In this document: piece after piece, positions 1 to 19,178 of the stretch
How the letters are laid out: each line of letters starts with the position of its first letter
Numbering within the stretch: position 1 is the first letter of the stretch
From: a virus
Virus record (IMG/VR): IMGVR_UViG_3300006737_000284
Location: 1-20,825 of that record
Length of the DNA stretch: 20,825 nt
Reading direction: 5' to 3' (one strand)
Made by a program: the position numbers and the translations under genes
Notes under the pieces: model-generated
Databases searched by the model: none
What the model saw: the letters and a program-made list of their open reading frames with translations, nothing else
What the model was told of the DNA's origin: nothing

Positions 1-2
1 AA

Positions 3-3000
3 TTTAATGCTCATGGTAATGATGCTAATTCAGGTTTTACAATTCTTTCTCTAGGTGGTAAACCTACTTTTTATGAAAGTAACGGTATACTAGAAATAGG
101 TGCAAGTCCTAATACAGACCATATAGGAATTTCTTTAAATAGACCAGTTACAGCTTCTATTATAAGTGGTAGCGGAACCATTACTTACGGTTCTTTATCA
201 GATGGTACAATTACAGTAACAGGCTTTGTAGACGAAGATGATATGTCTTCGAATAGTGCTACACTTATTCCTACACAACAATCAGTTAAAGCATACGCAG
301 ATACTAGACCTGGACCACAAGGCCCTACAGGTGCAACAGGACCTCAAGGCCCTACTGGATCAACAGGTTCTCAAGGACCGACTGGTACCCAAGGACCAAC
401 TGGATCACAAGGTCCAACTGGCGCTACGGGATCACAAGGTCCTACCGGTGCAACCGGGAGTCAAGGTCCTACAGGAGCCACTGGATCACAAGGACCAACT
501 GGTCCAACTGGATCACAAGGACCAACAGGTCCAACAGGTAGTCAAGGTCCTACCGGACCAACAGGTAGCCAAGGACCAACAGGTCCAACTGGATCACAAG
601 GACCAACAGGTCCAACAGGTAGTCAAGGACCAACAGGTCCAACAGGTAGCCAAGGCCCAACTGGAGCAACCGGAAGTCAAGGACCTACTGGTGCTACCGG
701 ATCTCAAGGCCCTACAGGTAGTACTGGATCTCAAGGTCCAACAGGACCACAAGGAGCTAATGCTTCTACTTCTATTTCAGGTAATACTAATAATAGAGTA
801 GTAACAGCTACAGGTAACTCCTCAGAACCATTTCAAGGTGAAGGAAATTTAACTTTTGATGGTTCTACTTTAGAAGTAACAGGAGACCTGACCGTAGAAG
901 GAAGTGTTACAGCCCAAGAATTTCATACTGAATTAGTATCATCTTCAATAGTATTCCAATCAGGTTCTACTAAGTTTGGAGATTCAATAGACGATATACA
1001 TTCATTTACAGGATCTATTAATATTTCAGGTTCTTTAGATTTAGAAGATAATGTAAGAGCTAGATTTGGTACTGGTAATGATCTTAATATTTACCACGAC
1101 GGAACAACAAGTAGAATACAAAATACTACTGGTGATGTTAGATTTATAAATTTCCAAGATGACGGAGATATTATATTTCAATCAGATGATGGTTCAGGCG
1201 ACGTAGCGGAATATTTTAGAGTTGATGGTGGAGCTGTTGGGACTATTTACTCTAAACCTTTAAAAGTTTTAGATAATGTTAATATTAACGTAGGTGGCGG
1301 GAATGATTTACAAATATCTCATGATGGTAGTGATTCTGAAATTGATAGTACTAACGGTAACCTTGTTATAAAAACATCCACTGCTACTGGTGATATTAGA
1401 TTTAATTCCGGTAGTACACAATATTTGAGATTTGACGGTGGTGCTGGTCAGATAATTGTTTCGAAAGAATTAAAATTACTCGACGATACTAAATTAAAAA
1501 TCGGTGGAGGAGGAGATTTACAAATATTTCATGATGGTACTGACGGAACAATAAGAGAGACTGAAGGTAATTTAACTATTAAGAACGATACTGCTGGCGC
1601 CGATATCATATTTACCTCAGGAAGTTCAGAATACTTTAGATTAGATGGAAGCGCAAGAGCCATAACTGTATCATCCGCTATGGGAATGTATTTTAATGAC
1701 GGTGTTGCAGCTAGATTTGGTACAGGAGGAGATTTAATTCTTTATCACGATGCTTCTAATTCTTATATACAGAATTCATTAGTAGGTGACTTAATTATAG
1801 AAAATCAAGTTAATGATAAAGATATTATCTTTAAATCAGATGATGGTTTAGGTGGTAGTGCAGAATATTTTAGAGTAGATGGAAGTTCTCAAAAAATTAT
1901 ATTTAGTAGCGCTTCTCAACATAGCGATAGTGTAATAGGTGCATTTGGATCAAGTAATGATTTACAAATCTTCCATAATAGTGCTGATTCATTTATTGAT
2001 AACTATACGGGTGATGTTACTATTAGAAATAGACAAGATGACGGGGATATTAAATTTATATCTGATGATGGATCTGGAGGTTTAACTGAATACTTTAGAG
2101 TCGATGGTGGTGACGAAAGAGTTGAATTTGAAAAAGACGTAGTAATAAATGCCAATGTAAGTGCAAGTGGAGAAATTTTAACATCTAGTCCTGGATCTTT
2201 TACACGTCCTTCTTTAGGATTTCAAACAGCCGGCGGCTTTACTGGAATATATTCTACCAACGGTACTGATAGAATGGATATTTCAATTGGGGGGACCGCA
2301 GAAATGCATTTTGATAATACCCGAGCTAAATTTGGACAATTCAGTTCATCACCAGTTATTGAATACGAATCACAAGCAAGTGGACCATCATTCACATTTG
2401 AAAATGATCTAGATACAGGTATAGGTAGAAAATCTGCCAATAAAATATCTGTTTATGCAGGAGGTGAAGTATTTACCGTAGGAGGTACTGAAGGTATTAC
2501 TGTAGTAGCAGGAGGTCTAGCTACAACAGGAGCAAGAGGAAGTATATCTTCTAACTCACACATAACAGCTTCTGGTAATATAAGCTCAAGTGCTACAATA
2601 TTTGCTAGTAAAGCACAATTTGGTAGTTCTACAGTTTTTGTAGACGGCCCAGCAGGACATATAACTGCATCAGGTGATATAAGCGGTAGTGGTACTGTAA
2701 CATTTGGTTCTTTATCAGATGATACGATTACAATAACAGGCTTTGTAGATGAAGATAATATGTCTTCTGATAGTGCTACACTTATACCAACCCAACAATC
2801 AGTAAAAGCATACGCAGATAGCAGACCTGGTCCTCAAGGACCAACAGGTAGTACCGGATCTCAAGGACCAACAGGTAGTACTGGATCACAAGGTCCAACA
2901 GGAACTCAAGGACCTACTGGATCGCAAGGTTCTACCGGAGCAACTGGATCACAAGGTCCAACAGGTGCGACTGGTTCTCAAGGACCTACTGGAGCTACTG

Positions 3001-4406
3001 GAAGTCAAGGACCAACTGGTCCAACAGGTAGTCAAGGTCCAACAGGCCCTACTGGATCACAAGGACCGACAGGTCCAACAGGATCGCAAGGTCCAACAGG
3101 TCCAACAGGTAGTCAAGGTCCTACCGGACCAACAGGTAGCCAAGGACCAACTGGTCCAACTGGTCCGACAGGAAGTCAAGGTCCTACCGGAGCGACTGGT
3201 TCTCAAGGACCGACAGGACCAACAGGTCCGACAGGATCTCAAGGACCTACTGGACCGACAGGACCAACAGGAAGTCAAGGCCCTACAGGTGCTACCGGAT
3301 CTCAAGGACCAACTGGACCTACCGGACCAACAGGTAGTCAAGGTCCTACTGGACCAACAGGTCCAACAGGTAGTCAAGGACCAACTGGAGCTACCGGAAG
3401 TCAAGGACCTACTGGAGCTACTGGAAGTCAAGGTCCTACCGGACCTACCGGACCAACCGGATCACAAGGACCGACTGGACCTACCGGACCGACAGGAAGT
3501 CAAGGTCCTACCGGAGCAACAGGTAGTCAAGGACCGACAGGTCCGACAGGACCAACTGGATCACAAGGTCCTACTGGACCGACAGGACCTACGGGAAGTC
3601 AAGGCCCTACAGGTGCTACCGGATCACAAGGTCCTACTGGACCAACTGGACCTACTGGATCACAAGGTCCGACAGGACCAACAGGTCCAACAGGTAGTCA
3701 AGGACCAACTGGAGCTACTGGAAGTCAAGGTCCAACAGGTCCGACAGGACCTACTGGATCACAAGGACCAACAGGACCAACAGGCCCTACTGGTTCTCAA
3801 GGACCTACTGGAGCTACCGGAAGTCAAGGTCCTACCGGATCTACTGGACCGACGGGAAGTCAAGGTCCTACTGGACCAACAGGTTCTACTGGTTCTCAAG
3901 GACCTACTGGAACGGGCGGTAGTCAAGGACCAACCGGATCAGGTGGAGCTCAAGGACCAACCGGAGCTTTAGGAATAACCGGAGATACTAACAATAGAGT
4001 TATTACAGCTGATGGTGATGGAACAGTAACTGGTGAAGCCAACTTAACCTTTGACGGTTCAGTTTTAGACATTACCGGTGATTTGACTATAGATGATAGT
4101 ATTATTACCTATCAAGAAAATACAGATATAGATATAGGAACAGAAACAGTAGCTTCAATAGCTCATGCAAGTTACGATGGAGCTTTCTTTGATTTTGTAA
4201 TTAAAAATGGAACAAATTTAAGAGCTGGAACAGTTTTTGCAACCCACGACGGTACTAATGTAGAATTTGCAGAAACATCCACAAACGATTTAGGAGATAC
4301 TTCTGATATAACTTTATTAGTTGATATCTCAGGAGCTGATTTAAGATTAAGAGCAACAACAACTTCTGATAACTGGACGGTTAAAACTCTGGTTAGAGGT
4401 TTATAA
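3..4406 (+). CDS. Collagen-like tail fibre protein, 5'-truncated by the window
   Basis: The frame is open from position 3, so the gene starts upstream and the ATG at 243 is an internal Met inside a repeated module. The product is probably a trimeric tail fibre/adhesin. Order of parts: a globular piece (3-190) resembling the C-terminal module of the fibre gene at 7146; a linker with [11 protein letters not shown]; a collagen-like Gly-X-Y array (312-758); an NNRV...NLTFDGS...VTGDLTV module and STKFGDS segment (about 780-1050); five imperfect repeats carrying DLQIFHDG-like and EYFRVDG-like motifs (about 1057-2115); a second copy of the linker; a longer collagen array (2829-3966); a second [16 protein letters not shown] module; and a C-terminal domain (about 4120-4406) of a type I recognise from marine T4-like fibres. 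No transmembrane segment or enzyme motif is visible. Collagen triplets in phage fibres are known to form rigid trimeric rods. The fibre role is well supported; the receptor is unknown. Confidence 0.85.
189..315 (+). repeat. Fibre linker module, copy 1
   Basis: Encodes [17 protein letters not shown], then [15 protein letters not shown] and RPG, immediately before the first collagen array. It aligns without gaps to 2706-2832 (offset 2517 nt), with high nucleotide identity and a few mostly synonymous changes. It marks the boundary of a duplicated [linker - collagen - globular] unit within one gene. Confidence 0.85.
312..758 (+). repeat. Collagen-like Gly-X-Y array A
   Basis: About 149 codons, or about 50 uninterrupted Gly-X-Y triplets, mainly GPT, GSQ, GAT and GST. 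Pro occupies X and Thr or Gln occupies Y. Codons for Gly, Pro, Thr and Ser vary synonymously from triplet to triplet, so the repeat is far more regular as protein than as DNA. It ends at GPQGANAS. Confidence 0.9.
1057..2115 (+). repeat. Five imperfect [15 protein letters not shown] repeats in the fibre
   Basis: Five tandem units of roughly 60-75 residues. Their lead motifs are [40 protein letters not shown] and [10 protein letters not shown]. Each is followed by a G-D/N-L/V strand segment, a D-I-I/R/K-F strand and a (E)Y(F/L)R(V/L/F)DG motif. The alternating pattern suggests a repetitive beta structure. I recognise this repeat from tail fibres of marine T4-like phages; its fold and ligand are not visible here. 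Confidence 0.75.
2706..2832 (+). repeat. Fibre linker module, copy 2
   Basis: Second copy of the 189-315 linker ([35 protein letters not shown]), again placed directly before a collagen array. The same-gene, same-orientation duplication indicates that the fibre grew by internal module duplication. Confidence 0.85.
2829..3966 (+). repeat. Collagen-like Gly-X-Y array B
   Basis: About 379 codons, or about 126 triplets. A recurring higher-order unit, [18 protein letters not shown] with variants, has synonymous differences between copies. No Gly interruption is visible. The array ends through [15 protein letters not shown] into GALGITGD. Pro is again restricted to X. Confidence 0.9.
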
Positions 4407-7101: not shown

Positions 7102-7109
7102 TATTTATA
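7102..7109 (+). promoter_or_regulatory. TATTTATA late-promoter-like element before fibre gene 2
   Basis: The context is AGATATTTATATAAGACCC, 36 nt before the ATG at 7146. It shares TATTTATA and a following A/T-rich, AGAC-like tail with the elements before the sheath, tube and gp26 genes. T4 late promoters use TATAAATA; this is its reverse complement read on the + strand. Confidence 0.5.
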
Positions 7110-7145: not shown

Positions 7146-10064
7146 ATGGCTAACGAATTCAAAATTAAAAAAGGCCTGATCGTACACGGATCAGGTTCTA
7201 CAGGAGATAATACAATTGTCGATATTCAAGGTAATCAAGGACAATTATTCTCTATCACAGATTCACTCTCTGGATCTTTATTTTCAGTAAACGATATTTC
7301 AGGTATTCCTATATTAGAAGTTGATTCTAATGATACAGTTAATATGGGTACCTTTGGTTCATTAGCCTTAATAGCATCAGGGTCAGACGTTAAACTACCA
7401 AATGTACCAGCAGGTTCAAGTGAAACAAAAATATTATTAGCAGATTCTGACGGTAAAATAGTTACTAGAACAAATCTTTCATTACAAGGTGCTACAGGTA
7501 GTACTGGAGCTCAAGGTCCAACAGGTGCAACTGGTTCTCAAGGACCGACCGGATCAACAGGATCACAAGGACCTACCGGATCAACTGGACCTACTGGTTC
7601 TCAAGGACCAACTGGACCGACAGGAAGTCAAGGACCTACCGGTCCAACAGGCCCAACTGGATCACAAGGACCAACTGGACCTACTGGAGGAACTGGACCA
7701 ACTGGATCACAAGGACCTACTGGACCAACTGGACCGACCGGACCACAAGGTGCAACTGGAGCAACCGGTTCTCAAGGACCGACAGGACCTACTGGATCTA
7801 CTGGATCACAAGGACCTACTGGACCTACTGGTCCAACAGGTTCTCAAGGCCCTACTGGTCCAACAGGTAGTCAAGGACCTACAGGTCCAACAGGTCCAAC
7901 TGGATCACAAGGACCTACCGGTCCAACAGGCCCAACTGGTAGTCAAGGACCTACTGGAGCAACGGGAAGTCAAGGCCCTACTGGACCTACTGGACCTACT
8001 GGTAGTCAAGGTCCGACAGGACCAACAGGATCTACTGGTCCGACAGGAAGTCAAGGTCCAACCGGACCAACCGGACCAACAGGCCCTCAAGGGGCAACAG
8101 GTGCTACTGGTTCACAAGGACCTACAGGTAACACAGGAAATACGGGTAGTCAAGGGCCTACTGGAGGAACTGGACCAAATGGAGGAACAGGGCCTCAAGG
8201 ACCTACTGGCCCAACTGGTAATACTGGATCTACTGGATCTCAGGGACCAACAGGACCAACAGGTAATACTGGTTCAACTGGATCTCAAGGCCCTACTGGA
8301 CCTACAGGTTCAGGAGGATCTACAGGATCTCAAGGACCAACAGGACCTACAGGTTCAGGAGGATCTACAGGATCACAAGGACCAACAGGACCAACTGGAG
8401 GAACAGGACCTACTGGATCTCAAGGACCGACAGGCCCAACTGGAAATACCGGAAGTCAAGGTCCAACAGGTAATACTGGATCAACTGGAAGTCAAGGACC
8501 AACAGGTCCTACAGGAGGAACAGGTCCTACAGGAAGTCAAGGCCCAACTGGACCTACTGGTAATACAGGAAATACAGGTAGTCAAGGACCGACAGGTCCT
8601 ACAGGTAGTGGCGGATCTACAGGATCACAAGGTCCTACTGGACCTACTGGTTCCGGAGGTAGTACTGGTAGTCAAGGTCCTACCGGACCGACTGGAGGAA
8701 CAGGTCCTACAGGTAGTCAAGGACCTACCGGACCGACTGGAAATACCGGTAATACAGGTTCGCAAGGACCTACCGGACCAACCGGAGGTGGAGGACCTAC
8801 TGGAAGTCAAGGACCTACCGGACCTACTGGAGGTGGAGGACCAACAGGATCGCAAGGTCCAACAGGACCTACTGGAGGTGGAGGACCAACAGGTAGTCAA
8901 GGTCCAACAGGATCAACCGGAGGTGGAGGACCTACTGGATCTCAAGGACCGACAGGACCAACCGGAGGTGGAGGACCTACTGGATCGCAAGGTCCAACAG
9001 GACCTACTGGTAATACCGGATCTCAAGGCCCTACTGGACCTACCGGATCTCAAGGCCCTACTGGACCTACTGGATCTACTGGATCTACTGGATCTACTGG
9101 ATCACAAGGCCCAACTGGACCTACTGGTTCAGGTGGAGGAACAGGACCTCAAGGTCCAAATGGACCTACAGGATCAGGTGGAGGAACAGGACCTCAAGGT
9201 CCGACAGGATCAACTGGAGGTGGAGGACCAACAGGACCTCAAGGACCATCAGGAGCATTGAGTATATCAGGAGATACTAATAATAGAGTAATTACTGCAG
9301 ACGGTGACGGTACAGTTACTGGAGAAGGTAATTTAACTTTTGATGGTAGTGAACTTACAGTATCAGGTGATATTGAATTTACAGGTACTTTAAGCGGTAG
9401 TCAAGATTCTCATATAGAGGCAGAACATTTTGTTGCTCATGGTATTAATGCAAACTCTGGTTTTGGTATAGCAACATTAGGCGGTAAACCTAGCGTGTAT
9501 GGATTTGATACTATACTACATCTTGGATCAGGTCCTAATGCAGGAACAACTAACGGGATTAATTTTAATTATCCAACTACTGGTTCAATTATTCGAGTAG
9601 ATAGCAATCTTGAATTCTTTGCATTTGATAATGCAGGCTCTTCAGATACAGTACAGTTAGGTACTGCAGATGTAGTTGGTGAAGTAGCTTATTGGGGAGT
9701 AGGTACCGTAACACAAGGAGAAGTTTTTGAACTTGAACAATTAGCTCCTAATAATATTCAATGGGATGAAGCTCATGCAGATTCTACTAATGATTCAACA
9801 GGTATGTTAGGACTGGCAATAGGTAGTGGGCAAGCTAACCAAGTAGGTATGTTAATAAGAGGTTATGCAAGATTTACTTCAAAATTTTCCTCACTTCCTA
9901 ATAATGGAAGCCCGGTATATCTAAGTGCTGCGACTGAAGGTCTTATAACCGGTACTGCACCATCAGGTACAGGAGATGTAGTAAGAATAGTTGGTTATGT
10001 AGTAGATAGTGACAATGAAGTAATATATTTTAATCCTGATAGTACATACGTTACTGTAAGTTAA
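7146..10064 (+). CDS. Collagen-like tail fibre protein 2
   Basis: 972 residues. The N-terminus ([19 protein letters not shown], then [15 protein letters not shown], about residues 1-110) is a module I recognise from the virion-proximal end of marine T4-like fibres. Residues about 115-704 form an uninterrupted Gly-X-Y array of about 196 triplets. An [23 protein letters not shown] module (about 709-740) follows, then a globular region with [10 protein letters not shown] and LGGKPSVYG that resembles the first 190 nt of the window. The C-terminal domain ends with [13 protein letters not shown] and [10 protein letters not shown], also seen in such fibres. The gene has its own promoter-like TATTTATA and the one good Shine-Dalgarno. 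It is complete, unlike the upstream fibre. Role: long rod-like fibre for host contact, probably trimeric; the receptor is unknown. Confidence 0.88.
7488..9257 (+). repeat. Collagen-like Gly-X-Y array C
   Basis: About 590 codons with Gly at every third position. The first part is mostly GPT/GSQ/GAT. From about 8120 onward GNT, GGT, GSG and GGG triplets become frequent. Some local units are nearly identical as DNA: 8298-8342 and 8343-8387 differ at one of 45 bases; a 29-nt match at 9129 and 9174 is also 45 nt apart; and a 9-nt unit occurs three times at 9072-9098. These indicate recent tandem duplications in the 3' half. Confidence 0.9.
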
Positions 10065-10076
10065 TAACATAAAAAT

Positions 10077-10805
10077 ATGCCTAACGTTAATGCTACAAAA
10101 TATACTATAGGGAATGGACAGATGTTTAACAATGATTTTGAATCTGCCCGAGAGACTGGTCAAAATCATACAGATAATTCAACGGCAAGTAACACTCGTG
10201 TTATACAGTATTTTCAAGATTCTGGTAAATCGGGAATCAATTATCAATTTACAAGATTATTCTGTGCTTTTGATCTTAGTAGTTATACTTCAGGTACTAT
10301 AACTAATTTAACATTTAATTATAGATCTACCACCACAACGTCTAATGCAGGAGCTCTAGAAAGAAGAATAGCTATAGTTAAATTTGATGGTATGGGAAAT
10401 GGTCCTTCATTTAGTAATTACGATGATAGTGAATTTTTTGATGATATAGATTATAGTAGTGCTTATACTGATGTATTAACTTCTATACCTCAATTTGCTG
10501 ATGCTAATCAAGATAATGCTGTAGCTATGAATTCTGCAGCTATTTCAGATGGCCAATCTGATGGTCAATTAAAATTTGCTGTAGTACAGTACACAAATGA
10601 TTATAACGGTAACGGTTCTTTAAGTGACGTAGATGCTTTTTACTTCGCTAATTTTAGCACAAGTAATTCAGGATTCGTACCTTTTTTATCTTTTGACTAT
10701 GCAGCAGGATATGGGAATAACGTTATCGGAGTATCATCAGGAAATATTGCAAACGTTAAAGGAGTAGCAACAGCTAATATAGCGAACGTTATAGGAGTAT
10801 CGTAA
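10077..10805 (+). CDS. Putative tail fibre/adhesin with C-terminal 11-residue repeats
   Basis: 242 residues, starting 12 nt after the second fibre gene. The core (FTRLFCAFDLSSYTSGTITN, then LTFNYRSTTTT) looks beta-rich and secretion-free. The last 30 residues contain an 11-residue repeat: NVIGVSSGNIA, NVKGVATANIA, NVIGVS. Similar 'NVxGVATANIxxV' tails are common in structural proteins of marine tailed phages, usually beside fibre genes. The role (fibre tip, adhesin or fibre chaperone) is inferred only from position and repeat type. No Shine-Dalgarno is visible (leader AACATAAAAAT). It is the last gene before a distinct promoter-like element, so it probably closes the fibre transcription unit. 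Confidence 0.6.
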   Translation: MPNVNATKYTIGNGQMFNNDFESARETGQNHTDNSTASNTRVIQYFQDSGKSGINYQFTRLFCAFDLSSYTSGTITNLTFNYRSTTTTSNAGALERRIAIVKFDGMGNGPSFSNYDDSEFFDDIDYSSAYTDVLTSIPQFADANQDNAVAMNSAAISDGQSDGQLKFAVVQYTNDYNGNGSLSDVDAFYFANFSTSNSGFVPFLSFDYAAGYGNNVIGVSSGNIANVKGVATANIANVIGVS

Positions 10806-10810
10806 AATAG

Positions 10811-10839
10811 TTGTTTATTAAATAAAAAATTCATATATT
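10811..10839 (+). promoter_or_regulatory. Promoter-like TTG-TATATT element before the modification cassette
   Basis: AGTTG (10809-10813), 16 nt, then TTCATATATTA (10830-10840). Read as sigma70-like it is TTGTTT-N17-TATATT. Read as Bacteroidota-type it has a -33 TTG and a TATATT at -7 that lacks the full TAnnTTTG. The same element with the same spacing occurs at 16459-16490. It lies 24 nt before the oxygenase start. Confidence 0.45.
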
Positions 10840-10863
10840 ATATATTAACTAAAAATTTTAAAC

Positions 10864-11457
10864 ATGTTTATAAGTTACAATTTCGATAGGGAGGCAACAG
10901 ACCCTACTAATTATTATTTTTTTGAAGAAGGTTTTACTCAAAAAGAATTAGATAAAATTGCCAAAGGAATAGAATCATTAGAAGAAAAAAAAGCTCAAAC
11001 TGTTGGAGGAGGTAAAGATGATGTTCGTTCATCTAAAGTAAGATGGATACCTCAAGATACTAACTGGTGGTGGTTATATGAAAAACTTCATGATATGGCC
11101 GTTGAAGCAAACAATTGTTTATGGAAGTTTGATTTAACAGCTTTATCTGAAAAAATTCAATATACTGAATATCATGCCGAAGAAGGCGGGCATTATACTT
11201 GGCATCAAGATATAGGACCTGGTGATATGTCAGTTAGAAAAATATCTATTACAGTTCAATTATCTGACCCTTCTGAATACGAAGGAGGAGATTTAGAGTT
11301 ATGGACAGCAGGTTCTGAAGAGCATGCTACAAAAGCACATAAAGGAGCCGGATCAGTATTTATGTTTCCTTCATATATGTTACACAGAGTTACTCCTATT
11401 ACTAAAGGAACAAGACGTTCATTTGTATTATGGTTAGGAGGTTCTCACTATAGGTAA
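10864..11457 (+). CDS. 2-oxoglutarate/Fe(II)-dependent oxygenase (PKHD/prolyl hydroxylase-like)
   Basis: 197 residues, the size of phage-encoded 2OG-Fe(II) oxygenases. The iron triad is visible as H114-x-D116 (YTWHQD) and H174 (MLHRVTPIT), with R184 (GTRRSFVLW) as the 2-oxoglutarate-binding Arg. VQLSDPSEYEGGDLEL is the conserved beta-strand pair preceding the distal His. The reaction is hydroxylation of a protein, peptide or small-molecule substrate with 2OG and O2; the substrate cannot be read from the sequence. Its position, 800 nt after a collagen-like fibre gene and first in a glycan-type cassette, suggests fibre modification, but the fibres lack the Y-position prolines that animal prolyl-4-hydroxylases use. 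Such genes are widespread in marine T4-like phages with debated roles. Catalytic assignment is firm; the target is open. Confidence 0.88.
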   Translation: MFISYNFDREATDPTNYYFFEEGFTQKELDKIAKGIESLEEKKAQTVGGGKDDVRSSKVRWIPQDTNWWWLYEKLHDMAVEANNCLWKFDLTALSEKIQYTEYHAEEGGHYTWHQDIGPGDMSVRKISITVQLSDPSEYEGGDLELWTAGSEEHATKAHKGAGSVFMFPSYMLHRVTPITKGTRRSFVLWLGGSHYR

Positions 11458-11458
11458 T

Positions 11459-13222
11459 ATGATTAAAAATTTAGCTAAGTTATGCTTAGATAATGGAGGT
11501 AGTATATCTCCTTCTATTATCCCTGGTAATCTCATTGATGGTACGGGTCTCTGTAATTCTTCTATCTTTATAGATGATAATGGTGATATTTTATTAAACT
11601 TAAGACATGTACATTATTCTCTATATCATAGTGAGTTTAAACAGAAGTTTTATAGCGGATGGGGCTGTTTAGCATATCTCAATCCTGAAGATGATATATG
11701 TCTTAAAACAGGTAATTACTTATGTAAGTTAGATCCTGAAACTCTTTATATTAAAGATTACACAAAAATCGATACTTCCAAATACGATATTAAACCTATA
11801 TGGGAATTTATAGGTTTGGAAGATTCTCGTATTTTTAGATGGGAGGGTAAGTTATTTGTTAGTGGAGTTAGGAGAGATGTAAAAGATGACGGTGAAGGTA
11901 GAATGGAATTATGCGAGATAGAATTTGAAGACGGTAAATATAAAGAAGTTTCGAGATTAAGAATAGAAGTAGATCCTCATACTTATTTAGAAAAAAATTG
12001 GATGCCTATTGTAGATATGCCTTACCATTATATAAGGTGGGCTAATCCTTTAGAAATAGTTAAAGTAGATCCTAATAATAAATCTAAAGTAGAAGTAAAA
12101 GAAGGGACTCTTACAACTATACCTTGCAAGACAGTAATCAATAAGAGTTATGAATATTATACAGAAAGAGGTTTAAGAGGAGGTTCTCAAGTATTAAAAT
12201 ATAAAGATTATTATTTAGCTATTACTCACGAATGTAACTATTGGATAAATGAAGGTAATACTAAAGATGCAAAATATTACCATAGATTTATTTTTTGGGA
12301 TAAAAATTGGAATTTAGTTAAACTCTCTAAACCATTTAAATTTATGGATACTCAAATTGAGTTTAGTTGTGGGCTAGCTATAAAAAATAAAAATTTTTTA
12401 ATTACCTACGGATTTCAAGATAATGCTGCTTATGTTTTGAAGATGCCTGAGAAAGTATTAGAAGAATTAGAGTACGAAGATTTAGAAAAAGATTTAAATT
12501 TTGAATCTAAACACCCAGATTTCAGTTGGGAATCAAACGAACCTTATCTTTCTAAAATAATCAATAAAGAAATATTTGAAGACGGTATTTATCAAAAGCA
12601 TTTTAAAGTTAAAGAGAACGATATTGTTCTAGATATTGGTGCTAACGTAGGAGCTTTCTCTTATAAAGCATTAAAAGAAAATCCTAAAAAAGTTTATAGT
12701 ATAGAACCTTCTAAATTATTATTACCTACTTTAGAAAAAAACCTTAGTAATTTTAGTAATAAAGAAATTATAAATTATAGATTAGCTGATAATAATTCTA
12801 AAAATAATAAATTTAACTATAACGAAGAAATTAACATCTACGATAACTCAGGCTCTACGTATGATAATATTAAATTTGATGATATTATTAAAAAATATAA
12901 TATAGATAAAATAGATTTTTTAAAATGTGATTCTGAAGGAGGAGAGTATTTTATTTTTAATAAAGAAAATAAAGATTGGATAAGTAATAATGTTAAACAT
13001 ATAGCAGCCGAATTCCATCTTTGGGGTGTCCCTGCAGCATTAGATAGTTTTTATATCTTCAGAGATTTATACTTACAAAATAAAGATAATTATATTGTAG
13101 AAAATAGAGAAGGAATTGATGTATCAATTCATATGAACGATGATGAATGGTTAAAGAATTTTAGCTGGGGTGAAAAAACTAGAGCACAATTAAACGTTTA
13201 TATAAAAGATGGTAGAAAGTAA
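11459..13222 (+). CDS. GH130-like beta-propeller fused to FkbM-type methyltransferase
   Basis: 587 residues. Residues about 30-330 show motifs of five-bladed propeller glycosidases/phosphorylases (GH130/GH43-like): GLEDSRIF (119-126), LEKNWMP (177-183), LRGGSQVLKY (239-248) and a late SCGLAI strand. The GH130 'EDPR' appears here as EDSR, so catalysis is uncertain and a glycan-binding role is possible. Residues about 375-585 form a SAM-dependent methyltransferase: motif I DIGANVGAFS (392-401), the acidic SIEP (414-417) and FLKCDSEGGEY (487-497), which is characteristic of FkbM. FkbM enzymes O-methylate sugars and natural products. The fusion suggests recognition or trimming of a sugar followed by methylation. 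The start is 1 nt after the oxygenase stop, and the end overlaps the next gene by 14 nt. Confidence 0.72.
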   Translation: MIKNLAKLCLDNGGSISPSIIPGNLIDGTGLCNSSIFIDDNGDILLNLRHVHYSLYHSEFKQKFYSGWGCLAYLNPEDDICLKTGNYLCKLDPETLYIKDYTKIDTSKYDIKPIWEFIGLEDSRIFRWEGKLFVSGVRRDVKDDGEGRMELCEIEFEDGKYKEVSRLRIEVDPHTYLEKNWMPIVDMPYHYIRWANPLEIVKVDPNNKSKVEVKEGTLTTIPCKTVINKSYEYYTERGLRGGSQVLKYKDYYLAITHECNYWINEGNTKDAKYYHRFIFWDKNWNLVKLSKPFKFMDTQIEFSCGLAIKNKNFLITYGFQDNAAYVLKMPEKVLEELEYEDLEKDLNFESKHPDFSWESNEPYLSKIINKEIFEDGIYQKHFKVKENDIVLDIGANVGAFSYKALKENPKKVYSIEPSKLLLPTLEKNLSNFSNKEIINYRLADNNSKNNKFNYNEEINIYDNSGSTYDNIKFDDIIKKYNIDKIDFLKCDSEGGEYFIFNKENKDWISNNVKHIAAEFHLWGVPAALDSFYIFRDLYLQNKDNYIVENREGIDVSIHMNDDEWLKNFSWGEKTRAQLNVYIKDGRK

Positions 13223-14609
13223 ATTACAACCCTTAATAGATAAATACATCAGTGACCCTAGTAATCCCGATAGTAATTACTGGTTAGCATACGAGTATGA
13301 AAAAATAGGACAAAATGCAGCTGCGTTATCTTATTATTTAAGATGTGCTGAAATGTCTAAAGATAAAGATTTGGTTTACGAATGTCTTTTAAAGACCTGG
13401 TTAATGTTACATAGAACTGAAAGAAGACCTTGGTATGAACATCAACAACTTTTAACAGCTATTACTTACTATCCTAAAAGACCTGAAGCTTATTACCTAC
13501 TATCTATTTTACATGAAAAAAAGGAAGAATGGAAAGAGTGTTTTTATTATGCAAGTGTAGGATTAGAACTATGCGATTTTAATCTACCTGATTTAAGAAC
13601 CGAAGTTAAATACCCAGGGGATTGTGCTCTTCTTTTACAAAAAGCTTTTAGTAGTTGGTACGTGGGACAAAGAGAAGAAAGTAAAAAACTTTGGTTAGAA
13701 ACTTATAATCATCCTAATATTTCTCCTGAACATAAAGATTTAGCTAAAGAAAATCTAATTAAATTTAATTTATTTAATTATAACGATAATGAAAAAATAG
13801 ATATAGTTTTACAAGGTAAATACTCAGAATATAGTTTAGAAACTGCTAAACAGTATTTAAAATTACCATTTGTTAATGATATAGTAATTTCATGTTGGGA
13901 AGATGACAATACTCCTACAGATAACATAGATAATATAAGATTTATCAAAAATAAATACCCTGCTTCAAATGGAACAGGTAACAGAAATTTGCAGTTAGTT
14001 TCATCTTTAAATGGAGTAAAATCTACAACTACTACTTTTGTAGTCAAAATGCGAAACGATCAAAGGTATGATAACGAAAGTATGCAAAAAATGCATAATT
14101 TTTTTAATGAAAATAAAGAGAAAAAAATAAGTTACGAAAACGATGATACGTTTCCTAAAAATAGAATATTAGTTGCAGGTAATTTTTATGCTTTCCCTTT
14201 CCATCCTAGAGATCATATATTTTGGGGTAATAGAGAGGATCTATTAGAGTTATTCGATGCTCCATTAGAACATAGTAGTATAGAAGAAAGAGTAAAAATG
14301 AAAAGAGAAGATTATTGGAAATACTACGATTGTTATATTAGAACTGAATCATATATAGGTAGCCATTATTGTTCTAATTTTAACGAAAAAATTAAAAAAT
14401 GGTTACTTAAACCTGAGTTATACCTTTATGATGATTCACTTAATTATAAAGAAGCACTAGAATTAAGTAATGAATTAACTAAAAAAGTATTTAAGGCTTT
14501 TCCAAAACAAGGTATAGACTTAGAATGGGATAAATACAACTGGCCTAAATACCCCTACGATAATCAATACACCCAGTTTCATGAAAGATGGCATGAGGAC
14601 GGATATTAA
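13209..14609 (+). CDS. TPR-like domain plus WavE-type glycosyltransferase-like protein
   Basis: 466 residues. The N-terminal about 170 residues are helical, with TPR-like pairs (YWLAYEYEKIGQNAAALSYY; YYLLSILHEKKEEWKECFYY). From about residue 196 the protein matches the WavE lipopolysaccharide-synthesis pattern: IDIVLQGKYSEYSLETAKQY, IVISCWEDD (225-233), GNRNLQLVSSLNG (257-269), VVKMRNDQR (278-286) and FHPRDHIFWGNREDL (331-345). WavE proteins act in LPS core assembly and are presumed glycosyltransferases; the donor is unknown. TPRs may bind a protein acceptor, as in O-GlcNAc transferase, which would fit protein glycosylation, but that is inference. The start lies inside the previous gene (14-nt overlap), suggesting coupled translation. 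No signal peptide: cytoplasmic. Confidence 0.65.
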   Translation: MVESKLQPLIDKYISDPSNPDSNYWLAYEYEKIGQNAAALSYYLRCAEMSKDKDLVYECLLKTWLMLHRTERRPWYEHQQLLTAITYYPKRPEAYYLLSILHEKKEEWKECFYYASVGLELCDFNLPDLRTEVKYPGDCALLLQKAFSSWYVGQREESKKLWLETYNHPNISPEHKDLAKENLIKFNLFNYNDNEKIDIVLQGKYSEYSLETAKQYLKLPFVNDIVISCWEDDNTPTDNIDNIRFIKNKYPASNGTGNRNLQLVSSLNGVKSTTTTFVVKMRNDQRYDNESMQKMHNFFNENKEKKISYENDDTFPKNRILVAGNFYAFPFHPRDHIFWGNREDLLELFDAPLEHSSIEERVKMKREDYWKYYDCYIRTESYIGSHYCSNFNEKIKKWLLKPELYLYDDSLNYKEALELSNELTKKVFKAFPKQGIDLEWDKYNWPKYPYDNQYTQFHERWHEDGY

Positions 14610-15426
14610 TATAGGACTTTCAGGATCTAAATTAAAGATTTTAAACAAAGGTCTCATAAGAAAATATTCCCCTGGTAACTATTTTAAAGATAGGTTTAAA
14701 CTACAAATAGAAAAACAATTAACATTTTCTAAAAGTAATTTTTATAAACTCTCTACACCTCGTATAGTACGGTATACTGATGAATATTTTGATATGGAGT
14801 ACATTCCTGGTGAAAGTTACAATGAATTTTTTAATAAATGTAATAAACAGGATTTAGATAATATAGTTAATATATGTATAGATTATTTCGAAAAAATTCT
14901 CTTATCATCAGAAAGTTATACAGATAGTGATATAAAATCTCTATTAACTGATAAATTCAATAAAGTTAAAAAAGAGTCTTCACATAGTGGTTATATTAAT
15001 TACATTACTCATAAGATTAACTCTACAGAATTTAACAATATTCCAAAATCATCCTGTCATGGTGACTTTACTGTTGCCAACATGATATTTTTTAAAGGTA
15101 ATATATCTTGTATAGATTTTTTAGATTCTTATATAGAAACGGTATTAGTAGATATGGTAAAATTAAAACAAGACATTTATTATGAATGGATTTTAGATAT
15201 TAATGAAAGCAATTTAAGAATAAGACAAAGTTTTAATTACTTATGGAATAAGATATATTCAAAATTTAAACAGTATTATAATTTGGAATTTACAAATTTT
15301 ATTACTATCTTAAATTGGTTAAGAATAGAACCTTATATAAAAACCGATAAGCAAAAAATAGTTTTAAATAATAACATAATTAATTCAAAATATTATGAAG
15401 AGTTTATTAATTCCTATAGCAGGTAA
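14581..15426 (+). CDS. APH/choline-kinase-like phosphotransferase
   Basis: 281 residues. SCHGDFTVANMIF (158-170) is the Brenner motif HGDxxxxN (H160, D162, N167), followed by the metal-binding DFLD segment around ISCIDF (175-180). This is the core of aminoglycoside phosphotransferase/choline-kinase-fold kinases. IRKYSPGNY near the N-terminus may hold the ATP-binding Lys (K28). The reaction is ATP-dependent phosphorylation of a small hydroxyl compound or sugar; the substrate is not determined. A nucleotidyltransferase follows immediately, the same pairing as LicA/LicC in phosphocholine decoration. It overlaps the upstream gene by 29 nt. An alternative ATG at 14593 would shorten this to 17 nt; the choice between the two starts is uncertain. 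Antibiotic resistance is not implied. Confidence 0.75.
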   Translation: MKDGMRTDINIGLSGSKLKILNKGLIRKYSPGNYFKDRFKLQIEKQLTFSKSNFYKLSTPRIVRYTDEYFDMEYIPGESYNEFFNKCNKQDLDNIVNICIDYFEKILLSSESYTDSDIKSLLTDKFNKVKKESSHSGYINYITHKINSTEFNNIPKSSCHGDFTVANMIFFKGNISCIDFLDSYIETVLVDMVKLKQDIYYEWILDINESNLRIRQSFNYLWNKIYSKFKQYYNLEFTNFITILNWLRIEPYIKTDKQKIVLNNNIINSKYYEEFINSYSR

Positions 15427-16453
15427 ATCTACAAGATTTCCTGATACAAAACCTAAATGGATGTTAACACATCCTGAGAGTGGTTACTTTATGGCTATAG
15501 AAAGCATTAGAGGATTAAATTTAGATTTTTTTGATAAAATTTATTTTGTTGCACTAAAAGAACATCAGAATAAATATAGTTTTGAGCAAGGATTCAAACA
15601 AGAGTTAACCCATTTAAATTTAGATAATAAAACGGAGATAGTATATCTAAACGATCAAACAAATTCTCAATCTGAAACTATCTATAAAGCATTACTAAAA
15701 AAAGATATTAAAGGGTTTATTACAATCAAAGACTCAGATAATTTTTTTGAAAGTACTTTTGAAGATACTAAAAATAAAGTTTCATATTATAATCTTCATA
15801 AAACTACTAATATTAACCCAAGTAATAAAAGTTATATACAGCTTGATGAAAATAATATAATAACTAATATAGTAGAAAAAACAATAATTAGCCCTACTTT
15901 TTCTATAGGAGGTTATTCATTTAACTCAGCAAATGATTTTATTCATAGTTTTGAATCTATAAAAGATATGGAAGGTGAATGTTATATAAGTAATATAATT
16001 TACGATATGATGTTAAAGGATCAAATATTTTATGGTCAAGTTTGTAATAACTATAAAGATTGGGGTACTTTGGAAGATTGGAATAATTACAAAACACAGT
16101 ATAATACTCTATTTGTTGATATAGACGGTACACTAGTTGAGAATACTTCATATAAATTTCCTCCTTATATAGGAAATGGAAAGCCACTTGTAAATAATAT
16201 TAAATGGTTAAGAAAATTATATAACGAAGGAAAAACACAAATAGTTTTGACTACCAGTAGACCTCAAGAATATATGCAAGAAACTATAATTGAATTATTT
16301 GAAAAAGAAATACCTTATGATAAATTAATTATGGGATTATACCACTGTAAAAGAATTATAATAAATGATTATGCTAATTCTAATCCTTACCCTTCTTGTA
16401 ATTCTATAAACATTAAAAGAAACTCAGACACTTTAGATACATATAAAATTTAA
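15395..16453 (+). CDS. Sugar-type nucleotidyltransferase fused to a HAD phosphatase
   Basis: 352 residues. N-terminal domain (1-235): LLIPIAGKSTRF (4-15) with KPKWML is the nucleotide-binding loop of NTP-transferases; IKDSDNFF (111-118) carries metal-binding Asp; GGYSF (172-176) and DWGTLEDW (222-229) are family hallmarks. C-terminal domain (236-352): HAD motif I DIDGTL (242-247), motif II-like VLTTSRP (284-290) and motif IV-like IINDYAN (322-328). Together they would activate a phosphorylated precursor to an NDP/CDP form and remove a phosphate, as in capsule or LPS precursor synthesis. The start overlaps the kinase gene by 32 nt. It is the last gene of the coupled cassette. Substrate unknown. 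Confidence 0.78.
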   Translation: MKSLLIPIAGKSTRFPDTKPKWMLTHPESGYFMAIESIRGLNLDFFDKIYFVALKEHQNKYSFEQGFKQELTHLNLDNKTEIVYLNDQTNSQSETIYKALLKKDIKGFITIKDSDNFFESTFEDTKNKVSYYNLHKTTNINPSNKSYIQLDENNIITNIVEKTIISPTFSIGGYSFNSANDFIHSFESIKDMEGECYISNIIYDMMLKDQIFYGQVCNNYKDWGTLEDWNNYKTQYNTLFVDIDGTLVENTSYKFPPYIGNGKPLVNNIKWLRKLYNEGKTQIVLTTSRPQEYMQETIIELFEKEIPYDKLIMGLYHCKRIIINDYANSNPYPSCNSINIKRNSDTLDTYKI

Positions 16454-16460
16454 AAAAAAG

Positions 16461-16489
16461 TTGGAAACTTTAAATAGTTTTCATATATT
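16461..16489 (+). promoter_or_regulatory. Promoter-like TTG-TATATT element before the coiled-coil gene
   Basis: TTGGAA-N17-TATATT, part of AGTTG-N16-TTCATATATTA (16459-16490), identical in the fixed positions and spacing to the element at 10809-10840. It lies 45 nt before the ATG at 16535, in a 81-nt gap that holds nothing else except A/T-rich sequence. Confidence 0.5.
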
Positions 16490-16534
16490 AGAGAATATAT
16501 ATATAATTAATCGATTAATAATTAAATTTTAAAA

Positions 16535-16834
16535 ATGGCAAATCAAAAATTAAAAAAAGATGAACTGCAAAAAATAGATGATATTCAAGTAAGAATGCAA
16601 GCTGTTAGAGCAGAGTTCGGATCTTTAGCATTAGCTGAAATTGATCTTAAAAATAGAAAAGCTTCTGTTGAAAGTTATTTAACTGAAACCCAAGAATTAG
16701 AAAATAAATTAGTTTCAGAATTACAAGATAAATATGGACGTGGTTCTATTGATCTAAAAGAAAAAGTATTTATTCCAGAAGAAGTTCCAGCAGCATCTGA
16801 ACCGGAAAAAGAAGTAGTTCCAACTGTAGAATAA
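16535..16834 (+). CDS. Small coiled-coil structural/accessory protein
   Basis: 99 residues, mostly one predicted amphipathic helix (about 5-70: DELQKIDDIQVRMQAVRAEF, then ALAEIDLKNRKASVESYLTE), followed by a YGRGSIDL turn and an acidic Pro/Glu tail. Similar 'ELQxxYGxGSIDL' coil proteins are common in marine T4-like phages next to structural genes, function unassigned. There is no membrane segment. It has its own promoter-like element and is followed by a terminator-type hairpin, so it may be a single-gene unit, expressed with different timing from the sheath gene. Role not known. Confidence 0.65.
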   Translation: MANQKLKKDELQKIDDIQVRMQAVRAEFGSLALAEIDLKNRKASVESYLTETQELENKLVSELQDKYGRGSIDLKEKVFIPEEVPAASEPEKEVVPTVE

Positions 16835-16859
16835 CTTCATCAATTTTTTTACTAATACA

Positions 16860-16886
16860 AGGGGAAGGTTTTACACCTTCCCTTCC
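16860..16886 (+). terminator. Rho-independent-type hairpin after the coiled-coil gene
   Basis: A perfect 8-bp stem GGGAAGGT / ACCTTCCC (16862-16869 with 16875-16882) with the 5-nt loop TTTAC, extended by a G-T and an A-T pair. It is followed by TTCC rather than a long U tract, then directly by TATTTATA. It probably separates the coiled-coil gene from the tail operon. Confidence 0.6.
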
Positions 16887-16894
16887 TATTTATA
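16887..16894 (+). promoter_or_regulatory. TATTTATA element, distal, before the sheath gene
   Basis: TATTTATA directly after the hairpin (TTCCTATTTATATACAAAG), 85 nt before the sheath ATG. The arrangement, hairpin then T(T)TCC then TATTTATA, repeats at 20770-20803. With the element at 16944 it gives the sheath gene two candidate promoters in tandem. Confidence 0.45.
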
Positions 16895-16943
16895 TACAAA
16901 GAACTAACTAAATAAAGCACGGTTGGTTTACAGAATAAGCTGA

Positions 16944-16951
16944 TATTTATA
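16944..16951 (+). promoter_or_regulatory. TATTTATA element, proximal, before the sheath gene
   Basis: TGATATTTATAAAAGACAT, 28 nt before the ATG at 16980. It closely matches the fibre-gene element AGATATTTATATAAGACCC, including the trailing AAGAC. Confidence 0.5.
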
Positions 16952-16979
16952 AAAGACATTTAAATAAACTTCATTAAAC

Positions 16980-19178
16980 ATGGCAGAAACAATTATCTCT
17001 CCAGGTGTATTCTCAAGAGAAAACGATATTTCATTTATTCAACCTGCACCTGTAGTTGCAGGAGCAGCAATTATTGGCCCAACTGCTAAAGGTCCAGTAG
17101 AAGTACCTACATTAGTTACTTCATATGGTGATTATCTTAGAAAATTTGGTAGCACATTTGCTTCCGGTTCTAACTCTTACGAATTCTTAACTTCAATAGC
17201 AGTAAAAAATTATTTTTCCCAAGGCGGAAACACAGTATTAGTATCAAGAGTAGCAAACGGTACGTTTACAGCAGCTACTAATACTAATATAACTAATACT
17301 CAAACCAATACTGGTGATACTTTTGCAGTCGGATCTCACGATTTGAATATAGGTTCAGGTCCAGCAGTAGATAATCAAGAATTTAGATTATCAAATGTAG
17401 GATCAGGAAATTTAACTTATAGATTCATAGCATCAGCGGACCCAGTTCCTGCAGATGATGTAGATGGTAAAGTATTTTTCTTTTCTACAGGCTCTAATGA
17501 GGCTGGTTCAGTTTCAAATATAGTAGATGCTATTAATAACGCTTCAGGTTTATCTAGTTTTGTATCTGCTAGTGTTAGCGGATCTACAAGTTTAGTAATC
17601 TCAGGTTCATCTGCCGGTACAGACTTTAACGGCATAGTATTTGCTTCAGGTTCTAGATTACCAGGAGGAGCAAACTTTGACTCAGATAGTACAACTATCT
17701 TTACTACAGCTGGTGGAACAAATACAGTAACAGCTACTACTAATCCATTTGCTTTAGAAACTATAGGTAGAGGTACATTATACAATAATGCAGTAAATGC
17801 AAGCGACGGAGGAAAACAAAATAGTGATGGTTCCTTAATGTCAGGTTCTGCTGATAATTTAAGATGGGAAGTATCTAACGTTAATACAGGATTAGGAACA
17901 TTTACCTTATCTGTGAGACAAGGAGATGATAATTTAAAAAATAAAACTATATTAGAAACATTTAATAATATATCTTTAGATCCTAATTCTCCTAATTATA
18001 TTGAAAAAACAATAGGTAATCAAGTAAAAAATATTACTACAGATAGTGACGGATCAAAATATATAGCAGTTTCAGGTTCATACGTTAATAAATCTAACTT
18101 TGTTAGAGTATCATCAGTAAATACCCCTACTATAAATTACTTAGGTAATGACGGATTAACTGTAGAATTAGATGCACAAAATATTTCTTACTCAGCTTCT
18201 TTACCAGCAGTAGGATCAGGGTCATTCTTTGGTGCTACAGGAGATTTATTCCAAAATGCTGGCGGAACTGGAAAAGCTAGTTCATACTTTTCTGATATTA
18301 GTAGTGATAATACTCAAGGTTTAGAACCTAGTGATTATTCCGATATTATATCAGTATTAGAAAATCAAGAAGAATACGTATTCAATATTATTTCTGCACC
18401 AGGTTTAATTTTCGAATTAACGGGTCATGCTACTCCTTTAAATGCTTTAATTTCATTAGCAGAAACAAGAGGAGATGCAATTGCAGTTGTAGATTTAGTA
18501 GATTACGGCTCAACAGTTTCTAACGCAACAGGACAGTCAGGAATAATTAATAGTTCTTATGCAGCTTCTTACTGGCCTTGGTTACAAACCCAAGCTGAAA
18601 CTGGTAGAAATGAATTCGTTCCAGCATCGGTTGTAATTCCAGGAGTATATGCATTTACAGATAATAGTGCAGCACCTTGGTTTGCACCAGCAGGATTGGT
18701 AAGAGGAGGAATTACTGGAGTTATTCAAGCTGAAAGAAGATTAACTAGAACACAAAGAGATACTCTTTACACTAATAAAGTTAATCCAATAGCTTCTTTC
18801 CCTGGTCAAGGTATTTCAGTATTTGGTCAGAAAACTTTACAAACTAAAGCTTCTGCCTTAGACAGAGTAAATGTTAGAAGATTATTAATTAATTTGAAGA
18901 AATTTATTGGTGATCAAGCTAGAACATTAGTATTTGAACAAAATACTATTACTACTCGTAATAGATTCTTAGCTACTGTTAACCCGTTCTTAGAATCAGT
19001 AGTACAGAGACAAGGTCTATTTGCTTTTAGAGTAGTAATGGACGACACTAACAATACAGCCGACGTTGTAGATAGAAATCAACTAATAGGTCAAATCTTT
19101 ATTCAGCCAGCTAAAACTGCAGAATTTATAGTCCTAGACTTTACAGTTGAACCTACAGGAGCAACATTTGCTGGATAA
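16980..19178 (+). CDS. 18: Tail sheath protein (T4 gp18-type)
   Basis: 732 residues, somewhat longer than T4 gp18 (659). The N-terminus SPGVFSRENDISFIQPAPVV, then AGAAIIGPTAKGPVEVPTLV and YGDYLRKFG, is the conserved sheath core. The middle (about 90-450) is a Gly/Ser/Thr-rich variable, surface-exposed insertion. The C-terminal about 140 residues (KVNPIASFPGQGISVFGQKT; RVNVRRLLINLKKFIGDQAR; an FRVVMDDTNN strand; a FIVLDFTVEPTGA end) form the conserved domain that polymerises around the tube. Sheath contraction drives the tube through the host envelope. Leader: two TATTTATA elements and no Shine-Dalgarno. The tube gene follows, as in T4. Confidence 0.95.
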   Translation: MAETIISPGVFSRENDISFIQPAPVVAGAAIIGPTAKGPVEVPTLVTSYGDYLRKFGSTFASGSNSYEFLTSIAVKNYFSQGGNTVLVSRVANGTFTAATNTNITNTQTNTGDTFAVGSHDLNIGSGPAVDNQEFRLSNVGSGNLTYRFIASADPVPADDVDGKVFFFSTGSNEAGSVSNIVDAINNASGLSSFVSASVSGSTSLVISGSSAGTDFNGIVFASGSRLPGGANFDSDSTTIFTTAGGTNTVTATTNPFALETIGRGTLYNNAVNASDGGKQNSDGSLMSGSADNLRWEVSNVNTGLGTFTLSVRQGDDNLKNKTILETFNNISLDPNSPNYIEKTIGNQVKNITTDSDGSKYIAVSGSYVNKSNFVRVSSVNTPTINYLGNDGLTVELDAQNISYSASLPAVGSGSFFGATGDLFQNAGGTGKASSYFSDISSDNTQGLEPSDYSDIISVLENQEEYVFNIISAPGLIFELTGHATPLNALISLAETRGDAIAVVDLVDYGSTVSNATGQSGIINSSYAASYWPWLQTQAETGRNEFVPASVVIPGVYAFTDNSAAPWFAPAGLVRGGITGVIQAERRLTRTQRDTLYTNKVNPIASFPGQGISVFGQKTLQTKASALDRVNVRRLLINLKKFIGDQARTLVFEQNTITTRNRFLATVNPFLESVVQRQGLFAFRVVMDDTNNTADVVDRNQLIGQIFIQPAKTAEFIVLDFTVEPTGATFAG

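What the first reader, a model, noticed from the sequence alone, without database searches (positions are those of the whole stretch)
10811..16453. Five-gene, translationally coupled modification cassette beside two collagen-like fibres
Seen: an oxygenase, a GH130-like/FkbM fusion, a TPR-WavE protein, an APH-like kinase and a nucleotidyltransferase-HAD fusion, with a 1-nt gap and overlaps of 14, 29 and 32 nt, behind one promoter-like element. The cassette looks AT-richer than the structural genes. Known: FkbM, WavE, kinase and nucleotidyltransferase families build and decorate glycans, and 2OG oxygenases hydroxylate proteins. Inferred: together they make and attach a methylated or hydroxylated decoration on the phage's own collagen-like fibres, or else remodel host LPS for superinfection exclusion. 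A phage-encoded collagen-decoration system would be new to me.
Basis: partly seen in the sequence, partly recalled or inferred. Interest (0 to 1): 0.8.

Follow-up and report, generated by a model that had tools for sequence, protein, structure and literature searches.

The report
Phage cassette decorating collagen-like tail fibres
Many aquatic viruses of bacteria carry, next to tail fibres built from collagen-like repeats, a small set of genes that looks made to hydroxylate those fibres and attach sugars to them, a habit so far described in animals, a few bacteria and giant viruses.

Summary
The five genes are real, at the stated coordinates and with the stated overlaps. Their core is a GH130/GT108-fold protein (GH130L) of a family found almost only in phages, always followed by a TPR adaptor domain (70 of 70 loci) whose attached enzyme domain is swapped between phages: WavE here, elsewhere FkbM, GT17, GT2 or GT25. 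In about a quarter of clusters a dedicated 2OG oxygenase sits 2-6 bp upstream. GH130L-bearing contigs carry collagen-like fibre genes far more often than matched GH130L-free phages (29/43 loci against 1/22; 25/30 records against 5/20); in 11 clusters the fibre gene lies within 200 bp. The reverse does not hold: 3/50 collagen-bearing viral contigs have GH130L. Cyanophages that have collagen but no GH130L carry, in the analogous slot, a fusion of collagen galactosyltransferase, PLOD glucosyltransferase and lysyl hydroxylase beside Gly-X-Lys fibres; GH130L fibres are Gly-X-Thr/Gln. Best reading (0.6): an enzyme cassette that decorates the virion's own collagen-like fibres. Chemistry, target residue and target protein are unproven. 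The published reading of such clusters, host LPS modification, stays possible (0.2). The APH and NTP-HAD genes are an exchangeable precursor module.

The parts
1..4406 (+). Collagen-like fibre COL1 (partial, open at left contig edge); Gly-X-Y repeats, Y = Thr 0.66, Gln 0.31
7146..10064 (+). Collagen-like fibre COL2; 197 consecutive Gly-X-Y triplets, Y = Thr 0.69, Gln 0.23, X = Pro 0.52; likely substrate
7102..7109 (+). TATTTATA element 44 bp before COL2; the same element precedes sheath, tube and hub genes in most homologues and is absent before the cassette genes; probable late promoter
10077..10805 (+). Unclassified 242-aa protein between COL2 and the cassette; recurs in the close relatives
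10864..11457 (+). 2OG-Fe(II) oxygenase (PF13640); H114, D116, H174, R184 conserved; forms one clade with all sampled GH130L-adjacent oxygenases
11459..13222 (+). GH130L: N-terminal GH130/GT108-fold domain (about aa 1-345) fused to FkbM methyltransferase (about aa 390-520)
13209..14609 (+). TPR adaptor domain (aa 1-185) fused to WavE-type glycosyltransferase domain (aa 224-388)
14581..15426 (+). APH-like kinase (weak match); pairs with the next gene in other phages
15395..16453 (+). Nucleotidyltransferase-fold domain (aa 1-228) fused to HAD phosphatase-like domain
16860..16884 (+). Terminator-like hairpin (10 pairs) after the small gene 16535-16834; the only strong + strand one in 9900-17100

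Best explanation
The cassette decorates the phage's own collagen-like tail fibres during virion assembly. It is read late with the fibre gene COL2. The 2OG oxygenase hydroxylates residues of the Gly-X-Y repeat. The APH kinase and nucleotidyltransferase-HAD protein make an activated sugar or alcohol precursor. GH130L and the TPR-WavE protein transfer sugars, the TPR domain being a constant adaptor that holds the substrate or GH130L. FkbM O-methylates the glycan. Shown by computation: the families, folds, conserved linkage and association with Gly-X-Y fibres. Inferred: order of steps, sugar, target residue (Thr or Gln in Y, or hydroxylated residues) and benefit (fibre stability, shielding or altered adhesion).
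For: GH130L-TPR linkage 70/70. The TPR domain is fused to different enzymes in different phages. Collagen association 29/43 against 1/22 (p 7e-7), 25/30 against 5/20 (p 7e-5), and 8/21 against 0/16 in terminase-sampled contigs (p 0.006). Fibre gene within 200 bp upstream in 11 of 43 clusters, 28-67 bp in ten of them. GH130L-linked oxygenases form one clade, support 100/96. No membrane segment in any of the five proteins. Late-type TATTTATA lies before COL2, sheath, tube and hub, not before the cassette. In related cyanophages without GH130L the analogous position holds a collagen galactosyltransferase-PLOD-lysyl hydroxylase fusion after Gly-X-Lys fibres, and the Y residue tracks the enzyme set (Y=Lys median 0.32 against 0.00, p 1e-6).
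Against: No biochemical or mass-spectrometric evidence. 5 of 30 GH130L records lack long Gly-X-Y runs (two of these have the cassette at the contig edge), and some lineages have lectin-like or repeat fibres beside the cassette. Thr and Gln in Y are common in unmodified bacterial collagens (PMC8968730), so triplet composition is not proof. One lineage's fibre has almost no Thr (L056, Y=Gln 0.93), so no single target residue fits all. APH + NTP-HAD also sit in large sugar-synthesis islands. Published work reads phage glycosyltransferases beside fibres as host O-chain modifiers (PMC7029224, PMC7824862). Contigs share ancestry, so the p-values overstate independence.
Confidence: 0.6

Rival explanations
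1. The cassette remodels host lipopolysaccharide or another surface glycan during infection to exclude competing phages; it sits beside fibres because both evolve with host recognition.
For: WavE and FkbM are named from LPS and glycan work; the published reading of glycosyltransferases in the fibre-rich hypervariable region of pelagimyophages and jumbo cyanophages is O-antigen change; the APH + NTP-HAD pair lies in LPS-like islands of other phages.
Against: No flippase, polymerase, lipid-carrier transferase or membrane segment in the cassette; the late structural position fits virion modification better than early exclusion; the collagen association and the collagen-specific PLOD fusion in the analogous slot are not predicted; mimivirus collagen enzymes were likewise once annotated as LPS enzymes (PMC9546862).
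Confidence: 0.2
2. The cassette glycosylates virion fibres in general (lectin-like or other fibre domains, or the 242-aa protein), and the link with Gly-X-Y repeats is secondary.
For: GH130L lies beside LamG-type fibres in L022, L024 and L127, a giant repeat fibre in L069/L071 and an RCC1-like fibre in L035.
Against: Most long GH130L-bearing records contain a Gly-X-Y gene as well, including the L069 contig.
Confidence: 0.15
3. The genes make a small secreted metabolite or modify host metabolism, with no virion or LPS target.
For: Some cyanophages carry 2OG oxygenase and methyltransferase clusters proposed to make secondary metabolites.
Against: Tight placement between fibre and tail genes; TPR adaptor and glycosyltransferase domains; no carrier or synthetase gene.
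Confidence: 0.05

Closest known systems
Mimivirus L230 / R699 collagen hydroxylation and glycosylation
   Same: Virus-encoded 2OG hydroxylase and sugar transferases for collagen-type Gly-X-Y proteins; activity of both enzymes shown (PMC9546862)
   Different: The window uses GH130/GT108-fold, TPR-WavE and FkbM proteins, not PLOD or GT25; fibres are Gly-X-Thr/Gln, not Gly-X-Lys; tailed phage, not giant virus
Cyanophage / Roseobacter phage COLGALT-PLOD-lysyl hydroxylase fusion (seen here; no report found in the library)
   Same: Gene order fibre, small gene, 2OG oxygenase(s), glycosylation enzyme, in related T4-like phages
   Different: Different transferase families and likely target residue; not found together with GH130L in any locus examined
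GH130 mannoside phosphorylases and GT108 mannosyltransferases (7fir, 6q4x)
   Same: Fold; conserved GLEDxR motif that resembles the GH130 catalytic motif (from general knowledge)
   Different: About 13% identity; no Pfam hit; sub-family almost only in phages; activity untested
Bacillus BclA collagen-like spore filament glycosylation
   Same: Bacterial collagen-like protein that is glycosylated (PMC8968730); rich in Gly-Pro-Thr like the window fibres (general knowledge)
   Different: Cellular spore protein with other enzymes (general knowledge)
Mycobacteriophage virion glycosylation (Freeman 2023, as cited in PMC12619734)
   Same: Phage virion proteins carry glycans
   Different: Capsid and tail tube, not fibres; no collagen link
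Pelagimyophage host recognition cluster glycosyltransferases (PMC7029224)
   Same: Glycosyltransferases among tail fibre genes of T4-like marine phages, whose structural operon also has collagen repeats
   Different: Authors infer host O-chain modification; no GH130L-TPR pair described in the passages read

Membership tests
GH130/GT108 fold family | five-bladed beta-propeller fold of mannoside phosphorylases/mannosyltransferases | tested here: met
   AlphaFold2 pTM 0.85; the 43 best PDB hits are GH130/GT108 or GH130-like
GH130/GT108 fold family | sequence match to the curated family (Pfam, or PDB chains by HMM) | tested here: not met
   no GH130 Pfam hit; profile search of PDB chains finds none; so fold-level kin only
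GH130/GT108 fold family | catalytic Asp motif and basic sugar/phosphate site | tested here: inconclusive
   G119-L-E-D122-x-R124 and many Arg/His/Lys invariant in 31 sequences; not superposed residue by residue
2OG-Fe(II) prolyl hydroxylase-like oxygenase | HxD...H iron triad and 2OG-binding Arg | tested here: met
   H114, D116, H174, R184 conserved in 20 GH130L-linked sequences; PF13640
2OG-Fe(II) prolyl hydroxylase-like oxygenase | protein substrate hydroxylation | not testable with these tools
   needs enzyme assay or mass spectrometry
FkbM methyltransferase | curated domain above cut-off | tested here: met
   PF05050 42 bits; TIGR01444 63 bits against cut-off 37.7
WavE | PF07507 above cut-off | tested here: met
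   50 bits against cut-off 27, partial profile 37-209/305
APH kinase | PF01636 above cut-off | tested here: not met
   22.4 against 23.2 bits, C-terminal part only; called APH-like only
Collagen PLOD/COLGALT-type system | GT25 and GT_PLOD domains with lysyl hydroxylase and Gly-X-Lys substrate | tested here: not met
   no PLOD/GT25 fusion in the window or in any GH130L locus; window fibres have essentially no Lys in Y
Collagen-like protein | long uninterrupted Gly-X-Y runs (PF01391) | tested here: met
   E 2e-77 and 9e-63; up to 197 triplets
Virion-modifying system | chemical modification present on virion protein | not testable with these tools
   needs mass spectrometry
Host LPS modification cassette | membrane flippase/transferase or lipid-carrier enzyme | tested here: not met
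   none among the five genes by Pfam; no hydrophobic segment

The most novel reading that the evidence does not exclude
Tailed phages have at least two separate enzyme systems, matched to the residue in the Y position, that hydroxylate and glycosylate their own collagen-like fibres: a GH130L-TPR cassette with swappable enzyme domains for Gly-X-Thr/Gln fibres, and a one-protein collagen galactosyltransferase-glucosyltransferase-lysyl hydroxylase for Gly-X-Lys fibres, the same reactions as in animals.
Probability: 0.5. Interest if true: 0.9.

Novelty: new variant of a known kind. Interest (0 to 1): 0.76.

Why it matters
It turns a common but loosely explained gene class in aquatic phages (glycosyltransferases and 2OG oxygenases beside fibres, usually read as LPS modifiers or as auxiliary metabolism) into a testable claim about virion fibre modification. 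It would place animal-type collagen modification in phages, offer soluble bacterial-host enzymes for making modified collagen, and help explain how very long phage fibres of often proline-poor Gly-X-Y repeats stay stable and keep or change host binding.

Tried and rejected
Sigma-70 promoter claim: rejected, as many sites by chance. Specificity of collagen for GH130L: rejected in the reverse direction, 3/50 collagen-bearing contigs have GH130L. A single target residue: rejected, since L056 fibres have almost no Thr. Defence-system reading: no PADLOC match beyond generic 2OG models. APH and NTP-HAD as essential core: rejected, absent from most GH130L loci and present in unrelated sugar islands. 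Sequence-level GH130 membership: no hit. A TPR-profile scan of viral contigs could not run, as the alignment had no conserved enough stretch. PDB sequence searches with the NTP-HAD and APH proteins found nothing useful; the NTP-HAD model is of low confidence.

Full report
What is there. The window is a whole 20.8-kb virus record of a T4-like myovirus fragment: two collagen-like fibres, three short proteins (two with LamG-type lectin domains), a 242-aa protein, the five-gene cassette, a 99-aa gene, then sheath, tube and hub genes. Genes 2-5 are AT-richer than the structural genes. The promoter claim fails: 51 sigma-70-like sites against 47.6 by chance. A better candidate is TATTTATA, which sits 44 bp before COL2 and before sheath, tube and hub, six times in the window and always between genes; it precedes the tube gene in 72 of 73 homologues but hardly ever precedes the cassette genes. 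Between 9900 and the hairpin at 16860 there is no other strong + strand terminator-like site (7146-9900 was not scanned). The cassette is therefore probably read with COL2; this is inference.

What the proteins are. Gene 1 is a 2OG-Fe(II) oxygenase with the iron triad and the 2OG-binding arginine; its PDB relatives are PKHD hydroxylases and, weakly, prolyl 4-hydroxylase. Gene 2 is FkbM methyltransferase behind a domain without any Pfam match. An AlphaFold2 model from 29 relatives (pTM 0.85) matches GH130/GT108 mannoside phosphorylases and mannosyltransferases or GH130-like entries in its 43 best PDB hits, although no sequence search finds that family. Gene 3 is TPR + WavE. Gene 4 is APH-like at best. 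Gene 5 is HAD behind a nucleotidyltransferase-like fold.

A conserved phage core. In 70 of 70 sampled clusters it is followed by or fused to the TPR domain, which is next to it or in the same ORF in 64. The piece fused to the TPR domain varies: WavE, FkbM, GT17, GT2/GT7C, GT25, DUF6445, radical SAM. In 16 of 65 clusters a 2OG oxygenase ends 2-6 bp before GH130L. All these oxygenases form one clade (100/96) apart from other cyanophage oxygenases. APH + NTP-HAD is an optional module, seen also in large sugar islands of other phages.

Link to collagen-like fibres. Of 43 GH130L clusters with at least 5 kb upstream, 29 have a Gly-X-Y gene in the locus, 11 of them within 200 bp upstream; of 22 GH130L-free sheath loci, 1 has (Fisher p 7e-7). 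On whole records, 25 of 30 with GH130L have long Gly-X-Y runs against 0 of 6 GH130L-free contigs and 5 of 14 complete or near-complete cyanophage and pelagiphage genomes (one of the five by a single match). In a third sample drawn by terminase, 8 of 21 GH130L contigs and 0 of 16 others have them; every GH130L record of 43 kb or more in that search, the two named cyanophages included, does. The reverse is weak: 3 of 50 collagen-bearing viral contigs have GH130L. So GH130L predicts collagen, not the other way. Shared ancestry inflates these p-values.

The key comparison. S-CAM9 and S-PRM1 have collagen-like fibres but no GH130L. There the fibre gene is followed by a small gene, two 2OG oxygenases and a 613/614-aa 'hypothetical protein' that is a fusion of GT25, PLOD glycosyltransferase domain and oxygenase. 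PDB matches are human LH3 (E 5e-33), procollagen galactosyltransferase 1 (1e-19) and a viral procollagen lysyl hydroxylase, 6ax6 (1e-8), which I take to be the mimivirus one. Relatives exist in S-8S53/55/56, Roseobacter phage CRP-6 and about 15 IMG/VR contigs. In 15 of the 16 loci with at least 3 kb upstream a Gly-X-Lys fibre is present (two of the 16 repeat S-CAM9 and S-PRM1). The fusion and GH130L never share a locus. Lys fills a median 0.32 of Y positions in its fibres and 0.00 in GH130L fibres (p 1e-6), which have Gln and Thr there; three GH130L loci (L195, L200, L207) reach 0.14-0.21 Lys. The Lys enzymes are an independent, homology-based argument that tailed phages modify their own collagen-like fibres, and they sit where the window's cassette sits relative to the fibre.

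Mechanism. Proposed order: late transcription with the fibre; hydroxylation by the 2OG oxygenase; precursor made by APH/NTP-HAD; transfer by GH130L and WavE, held by the TPR domain; O-methylation by FkbM. Shown: families, folds, linkage, association. Inferred: everything chemical. The target residue is open; Thr-rich Gly-Pro-Thr fits the window, but another lineage is almost free of Thr, and Thr in Y is common in unmodified bacterial collagens (PMC8968730).

Literature. Glycosyltransferases beside fibres in pelagimyophages are read as O-chain modifiers (PMC7029224), as are cyanophage clusters (PMC7824862). A Baltic virome study noted prolyl 4-hydroxylase genes and collagen in tail fibres and called their use cryptic (PMC9301287). 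Mimivirus modifies collagen with L230 and R699, and L230 was once annotated as an LPS enzyme (PMC9546862). No paper found in the held library describes the GH130L-TPR cassette or a phage PLOD fusion; subscription journals are mostly missing from it.

Verdict. Real, recurrent and best read as a fibre-decoration cassette (0.6), a new variant of virus-encoded collagen or virion modification; LPS modification remains the main rival (0.2).

Noticed in passing
L483 (S-CAM9) 7414-9255; L484 6961-8805; L507 (Roseobacter phage CRP-6) 7926-9695; L486-L500; L336 1086-2867: Phage genes, annotated as hypothetical or plain 2OG oxygenase, that fuse collagen galactosyltransferase (GT25), PLOD glucosyltransferase and lysyl hydroxylase-like domains, downstream of Gly-X-Lys collagen-like fibres.
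   Followed up: partly
window 7102, 16887, 16944, 19192, 19773, 20796: TATTTATA (not the T4-type TATAAATA) lies before structural genes, always between genes; 72 of 73 tube-gene homologues have it about 30 bp upstream. Possible late promoter variant of this phage group.
   Followed up: partly
L056 9965-18149 and relatives: Larger GH130L cassettes with two FkbM proteins, another methyltransferase, GT2, GT11 and a 994-aa TPR-containing fusion beside a 3075-aa Gly-Asn-Gln / Gly-Leu-Gln repeat fibre.
   Followed up: partly
L069 12259-13008: Cytidylyltransferase-like domain apparently fused to a cupin, right after GH130L and TPR-methyltransferase; judged by eye only.
   Followed up: no
L085 6024-20516, L004 8430-28986: Large runs of sugar-synthesis genes (GDP-mannose dehydratase, epimerases, methyltransferase, glycosyltransferases in L085; L004 not annotated) that contain the same APH + NTP-HAD pair.
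   Followed up: partly
L169-L177 (genome contigs): Contigs in MAGs filed as bacteria or an archaeon that carry GH130L + TPR, three with a phage sheath; they look like phage contigs binned with cells.
   Followed up: partly
Fold search viral library: Pithovirus and other giant-virus proteins have close fold matches (TM up to 0.72) to GH130L, suggesting a wider viral family of GH130/GT108-like proteins.
   Followed up: no
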